From assembly GCA_020718845.1 (NCBI GenBank), contig DYRG01000005.1, forward strand, positions 1 through 64,000: 64,000 nt of DNA, read 5' to 3'. Shown here piece by piece: positions 61,225 to 61,793 of this stretch; the stretch's first letter is position 1; each line of letters begins with the position of its first letter. Below the pieces are notes generated by a model, which did no database searches, was not told the origin of the DNA, and worked only from the letters and a program-made list of their open reading frames with translations. The position numbers and the translations under genes are program-made. The stretch comes from Thiomargarita sp. GTDB lineage: Bacteria; Pseudomonadota; Gammaproteobacteria; Beggiatoales; Beggiatoaceae.

Positions 61225-61253
61225 TTGACGGCTGACGTTGGGATCACTATAAT
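61225..61253 (+). promoter_or_regulatory. Strong sigma-70 promoter of the tRNA cluster
   Basis: TTGACG (61225-61230), a 17-bp spacer and TATAAT (61248-61253) are followed by a G/C-containing discriminator (GCTCGCT), 15 bp ahead of tRNA-Pro. The G/C discriminator is typical of stringently controlled stable-RNA promoters. Confidence 0.85.
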
Positions 61254-61267
61254 GCTCGCTTTCGTGA

Positions 61268-61344
<77 letters not shown>

Positions 61345-61353
61345 GATTTTTTA

Positions 61354-61696
61354 GTGCCCGTAGCTCATCTGGATAGAGCATCGGCCTTCTAAGCCCAAAT
61401 TGGACGCTTGGCGGGAAAATAACTGTCAAGATGACGAGTGCTATATCGGTGAAACCTGTTAAATGGCAATGCCGAGGAAACCTATCTAAATCAAGATGTT
61501 ATCGCAAAGGGATTTCAAAAATCGGTAGCGATAATGATTTAAAAAATCGGGATTCCGTAGAGACCACACGCACTCTGCCTGCAACGGTAAAGACATGGTC
61601 CAGACCACAAACATCTTTCTTATCAACAAGATGGCAGTGAAAACTGTAGTGGTACGAAGCCGAGGGTAACAGGTTCGAGTCCTGTCGGGCGCGCCA
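61354..61696 (+). tRNA. tRNA-Arg(TCT) interrupted by an intron
   Basis: Two exons, 61354-61390 (37 nt) and 61657-61696 (40 nt), join to a normal 77-nt tRNA. The acceptor GTGCCCG pairs with CGGGCGC (one G-U), the anticodon stem is CGGCC/GCCGA-side, and the loop TTCTAAG carries TCT. The T-arm is ACAGGTTCGAGTCCTGT and CCA is encoded. The exons are separated after the last anticodon base by a 266-nt group I intron. If no other tRNA reads AGA, splicing would be essential. Confidence 0.93.
61391..61656 (+). ncRNA. Group I self-splicing intron in tRNA-Arg(TCT)
   Basis: 266 nt between the anticodon T and the next base of the loop. The 5' exon ends in T and the intron ends in G (omega-G), both group I hallmarks. 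A GGAA at 61424-61427 can pair with TTCT of the 5' exon, putting a U-G at the splice site (tentative P1). P4-P6-like blocks CGGTGAAACC (61447-61456) and GGCAATGCCGAGG (61465 region) and a P7 helix, GACCA (61562-61566) with TGGTC (61596-61600), match the small subgroup IC3 introns of bacterial tRNAs. No homing endonuclease frame is present. Confidence 0.88.
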
Positions 61697-61716: not shown

Positions 61717-61793
61717 GGTGAATGTAGCTCAGTCGGTAGAGCTCTGGATTGTGATTCCAGCGGTCGTGGGTTCGAGCCCCATCGTTCACCCCA
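61717..61793 (+). tRNA. tRNA-His(GTG)
   Basis: A 77-nt cloverleaf including the extra G-1 that pairs with C73 (histidine identity). The anticodon loop TTGTGAT has GTG, the T-loop is TTCGAGC and CCA is encoded. It lies 20 bp after tRNA-Arg, probably in one transcript with it. Confidence 0.95.

What the first reader, a model, noticed from the sequence alone, without database searches (positions are those of the whole stretch)
61354..61696. Group I intron in the anticodon loop of tRNA-Arg(UCU)
The tRNA reads as a perfect 77-nt molecule only if 266 nt (61391-61656) are removed between anticodon base 36 and base 37. The insert has a 5' exon ending in U, a terminal G, a complete P7 pairing (61562-61566 with 61596-61600) and P4/P6-like blocks. 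Group I introns in bacterial tRNAs are known for tRNA-Leu(UAA) in cyanobacteria, tRNA-Ile(CAU) in Azoarcus and tRNA-Arg(CCU) in Agrobacterium. A tRNA-Arg(UCU) host in a gammaproteobacterium would be an additional case. Decoding of AGA would depend on splicing if this is the only such tRNA.
Basis: partly seen in the sequence, partly recalled or inferred. Interest (0 to 1): 0.85.

Follow-up and report, generated by a model that had tools for sequence, protein, structure and literature searches.

The report
Self-splicing intron in arginine tRNA gene
The only gene found for the tRNA that reads the arginine codon AGA in this sulfur bacterium (family Beggiatoaceae) is interrupted by a 266-base RNA that almost certainly cuts itself out; the same kind of intron was already reported from two relatives and proves to be widespread, so this is a sound but not surprising case.

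Summary
With introns allowed, ARAGORN reads window 61354-61696 as one tRNA-Arg(UCU) with a 266-nt intron (61391-61656) after anticodon base U36. The insert has a full group I core, P1-P9 with the P3/P7 pseudoknot. Across 19 orthologues 97.6% of cells pair and 23 pairs change on both sides (shuffles 9.6). A covariance model trained without the window scores it 100.9 bits, E 1e-28. No other tRNA-Arg(UCU) was found in this genome. In the family 22 genomes carry the intron and 15 have the uninterrupted gene in the same Pro-Arg-His cluster.

It is not new as a kind. [quoted passage not shown] Added here: the structure with covariation; probable subgroup IC3; spread in the family; and related introns in other gammaproteobacteria two bases away, after U34, with a different guide sequence. 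The two kinds form one clade against Leu introns (100/100), their order unresolved. Self-splicing is inferred, not shown.

The parts
61225..61253 (+). sigma-70-like promoter TTGACG-17-TATAAT (11 of 12) ahead of the tRNA cluster
   Evidence: consensus match only
61268..61344 (+). tRNA-Pro(UGG), first gene of the cluster
61354..61390 (+). tRNA-Arg(UCU) 5' exon (37 nt), ends at anticodon base U36
61391..61656 (+). group I intron (probable IC3), 266 nt, no long ORF
61388..61404 (+). P1: anticodon UCU (61388-61390) with guide GGA (61402-61404), U.G pair 61390/61402 at the 5' splice site; extended by AA/UU
   Evidence: UCU/GGA invariant in 19; the extension pairs in only part of the set
61407..61430 (+). 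P2, 8 bp
   Evidence: 7 of 8 pairs change on both sides among orthologues
61436..61441 (+). P3 5' strand (GAGUGC), pairs with 61570-61575
   Evidence: the window's own two changes against all 18 others (U-A to G-C, G-C to A-U) are compensated
61446..61475 (+). P4 (61446-61451/61470-61475) and P5 (61455-61456/61465-61466)
   Evidence: 99-100% paired, mostly invariant
61476..61556 (+). P6 (61476-61477/61555-61556), P6a (61481-61482/61550-61551) and variable peripheral region
61562..61566 (+). P7 5' strand GACCA
   Evidence: 100% paired, one compensatory change (L053)
61570..61575 (+). P3 3' strand GCACUC
61577..61588 (+). P8, 3 bp
   Evidence: two of three pairs change on both sides
61596..61600 (+). 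P7 3' strand UGGUC
61604..61653 (+). P9 (61604-61608/61649-61653), P9a (61612-61617/61628-61633), P9b (61635-61638/61643-61646) with invariant GAAA loop
61656..61656 (+). terminal G of the intron
   Evidence: G in all 19 orthologues
61657..61696 (+). tRNA-Arg(UCU) 3' exon (40 nt) with encoded CCA
61718..61793 (+). tRNA-His(GUG), third gene of the cluster

Best explanation
[quoted passage not shown] Inferred steps: the Pro-Arg-His cluster is transcribed as one RNA; the intron folds; its guide GGA pairs with the anticodon UCU to form P1 with a U.G pair; an external guanosine held in P7 attacks after U36; the freed U36 then attacks after the terminal G; exons join and the intron leaves. The mature tRNA reads AGA, so AGA decoding depends on splicing. 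Shown here: anatomy, conservation with covariation, single copy, empty sites in relatives. Inferred: catalysis, cofactor, timing.
For: Intron-aware tRNA call. Pairs counted on 19 orthologues: 97.6% paired, 23 pairs with changes on both sides against 9.6 +/- 1.8 in shuffles, 0/500 as high; sliding the partner drops pairing to 25-41%. Left-out covariance model: 100.9 bits, only significant hit in 64 kb. Rfam Intron_gpI E 0.0043 at the place; the Arg(CCU) relative L134, which model R1 scores at 92.8 bits, passes Rfam's own cut-off with 69.9 bits. Guide triplet follows the anticodon: GGA for UCU in all 19, GGG for CCU in the Arg(CCU) introns listed. Fifteen relatives have the same cluster with an uninterrupted gene. 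Joined-exon search finds no second tRNA-Arg(UCU); AGA is 106 of 15,087 codons in 31 window ORFs.
Against: No splicing data. Rfam's own model scores below its cut-off. P1 is short (three firm pairs) and its extension is not kept in all orthologues. Subgroup IC3 rests on kinship to Leu(UAA) and Arg(CCU) introns and on recalled features. The genome is a draft (123 contigs), so a second tRNA-Arg(UCU) cannot be wholly excluded.
Confidence: 0.93

Rival explanations
1. A group I intron that has lost autonomous activity and needs a host protein to splice, or splices poorly.
For: Peripheral regions vary a lot and P1 is short. Long branch of the window copy in one tree (0.43).
Against: Core bases are intact and the window's own changes in P3 are compensated, which speaks for continued selection.
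Confidence: 0.2
2. A dead tRNA-Arg(UCU) pseudogene, with AGA read by an intact tRNA elsewhere or from an unassembled piece.
For: Draft assembly of 123 contigs; the tRNA family search scored only 150 of 321 candidates.
Against: Exons form a perfect cloverleaf; the genome search with joined exons finds only these two halves and other Arg or Asp tRNAs; AGA is used 7 per 1000 codons; 21 relatives keep the same arrangement.
Confidence: 0.03
3. A non-group-I insert: archaeal-type bulge-helix-bulge intron, or a chance insertion of a mobile element.
For: Sits next to the anticodon, near the canonical 37/38 site of enzymatically spliced introns (site described in PMC4033280).
Against: Full group I core with covariation and length of 266 nt; no transposase or long ORF inside.
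Confidence: 0.01

Closest known systems
Putative group I introns of tRNA-Arg-TCT in Ca. Maribeggiatoa (BOGUAY) and Ca. Thiomargarita nelsonii Bud S10 (MacGregor et al. 2013a as cited in PMC4853749)
   Same: Same host gene, same bacterial family; an orthologous intron is present in a T. nelsonii Hydrate Ridge contig (L081/L044, contig length 118,048)
   Different: Another genome; those authors state that structure and subgroup were not determined
Arg(UCU) group I introns after U34 in other gammaproteobacteria and two MAGs labelled Chloroflexi and Lactobacillales (L139-L146, L148, L149, L077, L079)
   Same: Same host tRNA and one clade with the window's introns (100/100)
   Different: Inserted two bases upstream, guide GAG in place of GGA
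Leu(UAA) group I introns after U34 (cyanobacteria and plastids; here also Beggiatoaceae)
   Same: Same fold and detected by the same covariance model
   Different: Other host, site and guide; separate clade
Arg(CCU) introns after U36 (Agrobacterium type) and Ile(CAU) intron of Azoarcus
   Same: Arg(CCU) introns sit after U36, with guide GGG matching CCU; Azoarcus named from the literature and memory only
   Different: Other host anticodon; fall among the Leu-side introns in the tree, not with Arg(UCU)

Membership tests
Group I intron | Conserved core P3-P8 and P4-P6 with P7 and the P3/P7 pseudoknot | tested here: met
   P3, P4, P6, P7, P8 95-100% paired in 19 sequences, with compensatory changes in P3, P7, P8
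Group I intron | 5' exon ends in U paired to G of the internal guide | tested here: met
   U.G 61390/61402 invariant in 19
Group I intron | Intron ends in G | tested here: met
   G in all 19
Group I intron | Covariance-model match | tested here: met
   Leave-one-out family model 100.9 bits; Rfam RF00028 E 0.0043 but under its gathering score
Group I intron | Guanosine-dependent two-step self-splicing | not testable with these tools
   needs in-vitro transcription with GTP
Subgroup IC3 | Core most like bacterial tRNA introns assigned to IC3 (cyanobacterial Leu, Azoarcus Ile) | tested here: inconclusive
   Leu(UAA) 34-site and Arg(CCU) introns are found by the same model; no direct comparison with the Azoarcus or cyanobacterial reference sequences
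Beggiatoaceae tRNA-Arg-TCT intron (PMC4853749) | Group I-like insert in tRNA-Arg(UCU) of this family | tested here: met
   orthologue in T. nelsonii and others, same cluster Pro-Arg-His

The most novel reading that the evidence does not exclude
An intron moved by two bases inside one tRNA anticodon loop: Arg(UCU) introns after U34 (guide GAG) and after U36 (guide GGA) descend from one Arg(UCU) intron, the site having changed together with the guide sequence. This would be a traceable case of group I intron retargeting within a host gene.
Probability: 0.45. Interest if true: 0.55.

Novelty: new member of a known kind. Interest (0 to 1): 0.35.

Why it matters
AGA decoding in this genome appears to hang on a ribozyme. 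Such tRNA genes were missed by default ARAGORN here, the intron fell below the Rfam cut-off, and tRNAscan-SE is stated not to be designed for them (PMC8450103), so missing-tRNA reports in Beggiatoaceae are annotation gaps. The family, with introns in at least five tRNA genes at three positions and with empty sites in close relatives, is a good natural set for asking how small introns without an endonuclease spread between tRNA genes.

Tried and rejected
Rfam over 6 kb and Rfam's Intron_gpI on the whole genome do not find the window's intron; only a short stretch or a family model does. Minimum-energy folding (z -2.72) recovers P2, P3 and parts of P9 but not the pseudoknot, so covariation was used instead. 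Whether the 34-site or the 36-site is ancestral could not be resolved: AU tests reject neither group as one clade (p 0.24 and 0.34). A scripted tally of guide triplets by host failed (regular expressions picked up wrong stretches) and is not used; the guide statements rest on the printed junctions. The 2013 source papers are not held.

Full report
What is there. The window carries tRNA-Pro(UGG) at 61268-61344 and tRNA-His(GUG) at 61718-61793. Between them ARAGORN, when introns are allowed, reads tRNA-Arg(UCU) at 61354-61696 with a 266-nt intron between the loop halves cttct and aagcc. The exons join to a 77-nt cloverleaf. The 5' exon ends in U36, the intron in G. AAGCC occurs at both junctions, so sequence alone leaves five choices; only the cut after U36 gives the U.G pair and terminal G kept in all 19 orthologues. 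A sigma-70-like promoter (TTGACG-17-TATAAT, 61225-61253) lies ahead of the cluster. The longest stop-free run inside the intron is 82 codons with no sign of an endonuclease gene.

Structure. P1 to P9 can be written on the sequence. On 19 orthologous introns (A1) the 54 named pairs form in 97.6% of cells; 23 pairs have changes on both sides against 9.6 +/- 1.8 in shuffles (0 of 500 as high), and sliding the partners by one to three columns cuts pairing to 25-41%. Compensatory changes fall in P2, P3, P7, P8, P9, P9a and P9b. The two window-specific changes in P3 are both compensated, so the window copy itself has been under selection. P4, P5, P6 and most of P7 are invariant and so neither support nor oppose by covariation. 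A slid control cannot fully remove the bias that the structure was derived on the window sequence.

Statistical test. Rfam's general group I model gives 20.3 bits (E 0.0043 on 351 nt), under its cut-off of 50. A core model built from 15 relatives without the window scores it 100.9 bits, E 1.2e-28, with nothing else significant in 64 kb. The related Arg(CCU) intron L134, found by the sister model R1 at 92.8 bits, reaches 69.9 bits with Rfam, above cut-off, which ties the group to recognised group I introns.

Copy number and need. The genome's tRNA search, the ARAGORN calls on those places and the joined-exon search show Arg(ACG), Arg(CCG), Arg(CCU) and no second Arg(UCU). AGA makes up 106 of 15,087 codons in 31 window ORFs, AGG 5. 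If the draft (123 contigs, 99.97% complete by the tool) is not missing a copy, AGA decoding needs splicing; this is inference.

Relatives. The family is identified as Beggiatoaceae by record titles of matching contigs: Thiomargarita, Thioploca, Parabeggiatoa, Halobeggiatoa, Venteria (contig lengths agree with those). Of 43 genomes, 22 have the Arg(UCU) intron after U36 (19, three more) and 15 have an uninterrupted tRNA-Arg(UCU) in the same Pro-Arg-His cluster; six were not settled. Other hosts in the family: Leu(UAA) after U34, Ile(CAU) and fMet(CAU), whose junctions read as after U33, and Arg(CCU) after U36 (assignment of Ile and fMet is by reading the exons, as ARAGORN misnames some). In this genome tRNA-Leu(UAA) is not interrupted.

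Beyond the family. In 369 genomes of the class, 56 match the core model; among the best 26 loci, ten carry Arg(UCU) introns after U34, others sit in Leu(UAA), Arg(CCU), Tyr and Ser tRNA genes. A phylum sample adds more, among them one ARAGORN call of Arg(UCU) after U36 outside the family (L184). The guide triplet matches the exon: GGA with UCU, GGG with CCU, GAG with the C-U-U before the 34-site. On trees of the core, Arg(UCU) introns of both sites form one clade against Leu introns (100/100), while the order of the two sites is open (AU p 0.24 and 0.34). Trees rest on about 150 columns; bootstraps had not settled, and branches are weak inside the clade.

What is known. PMC4853749 reports, for T. 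nelsonii and citing MacGregor et al. [quoted passage not shown] A 2014 review lists group I tRNA introns for cyanobacteria, alpha- and betaproteobacteria only (PMC4033280). tRNAscan-SE 2.0 states that it is not designed to detect them and that it found them in Ile2 tRNAs of Acidovorax and Burkholderia (PMC8450103). The finding is therefore a new member of a reported kind.

Mechanism. By established group I chemistry: guanosine attack after U36, then U36 attack after the terminal G. Folding, catalysis and dependence on proteins were not tested here. IC3 is the likely subgroup from kinship with the Leu(UAA)-type introns; similarity of the P4-P7 region to the Azoarcus intron was noticed from memory and counts as a lead only.

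Noticed in passing
L123, L124, L125, L129; L131; L134: Other Beggiatoaceae carry related introns in tRNA-Ile(CAU), tRNA-fMet and tRNA-Arg(CCU), besides Leu(UAA): at least five tRNA hosts in one family.
   Followed up: partly
L077 1774-2070 (-), L079 197-501 (+): Two MAG contigs labelled Chloroflexi and Lactobacillales carry tRNA-Arg(UCU) with a closely similar intron after U34: horizontal transfer or wrong binning.
   Followed up: partly
L067 297-373 (G000:C49): tRNA-like gene of the same genome that ARAGORN cannot assign, with a four-base anticodon ggac and an enlarged anticodon loop.
   Followed up: no
L138 (G022:C7:23000-23900): 16S rRNA gene of a relative with an intron-like insert holding an open frame.
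   Followed up: no
   Followed up: no
L178 (G017:C404): Tandem duplicated Pro-Arg-His cluster in which one Arg copy has anticodon CCG in place of TCT.
   Followed up: no
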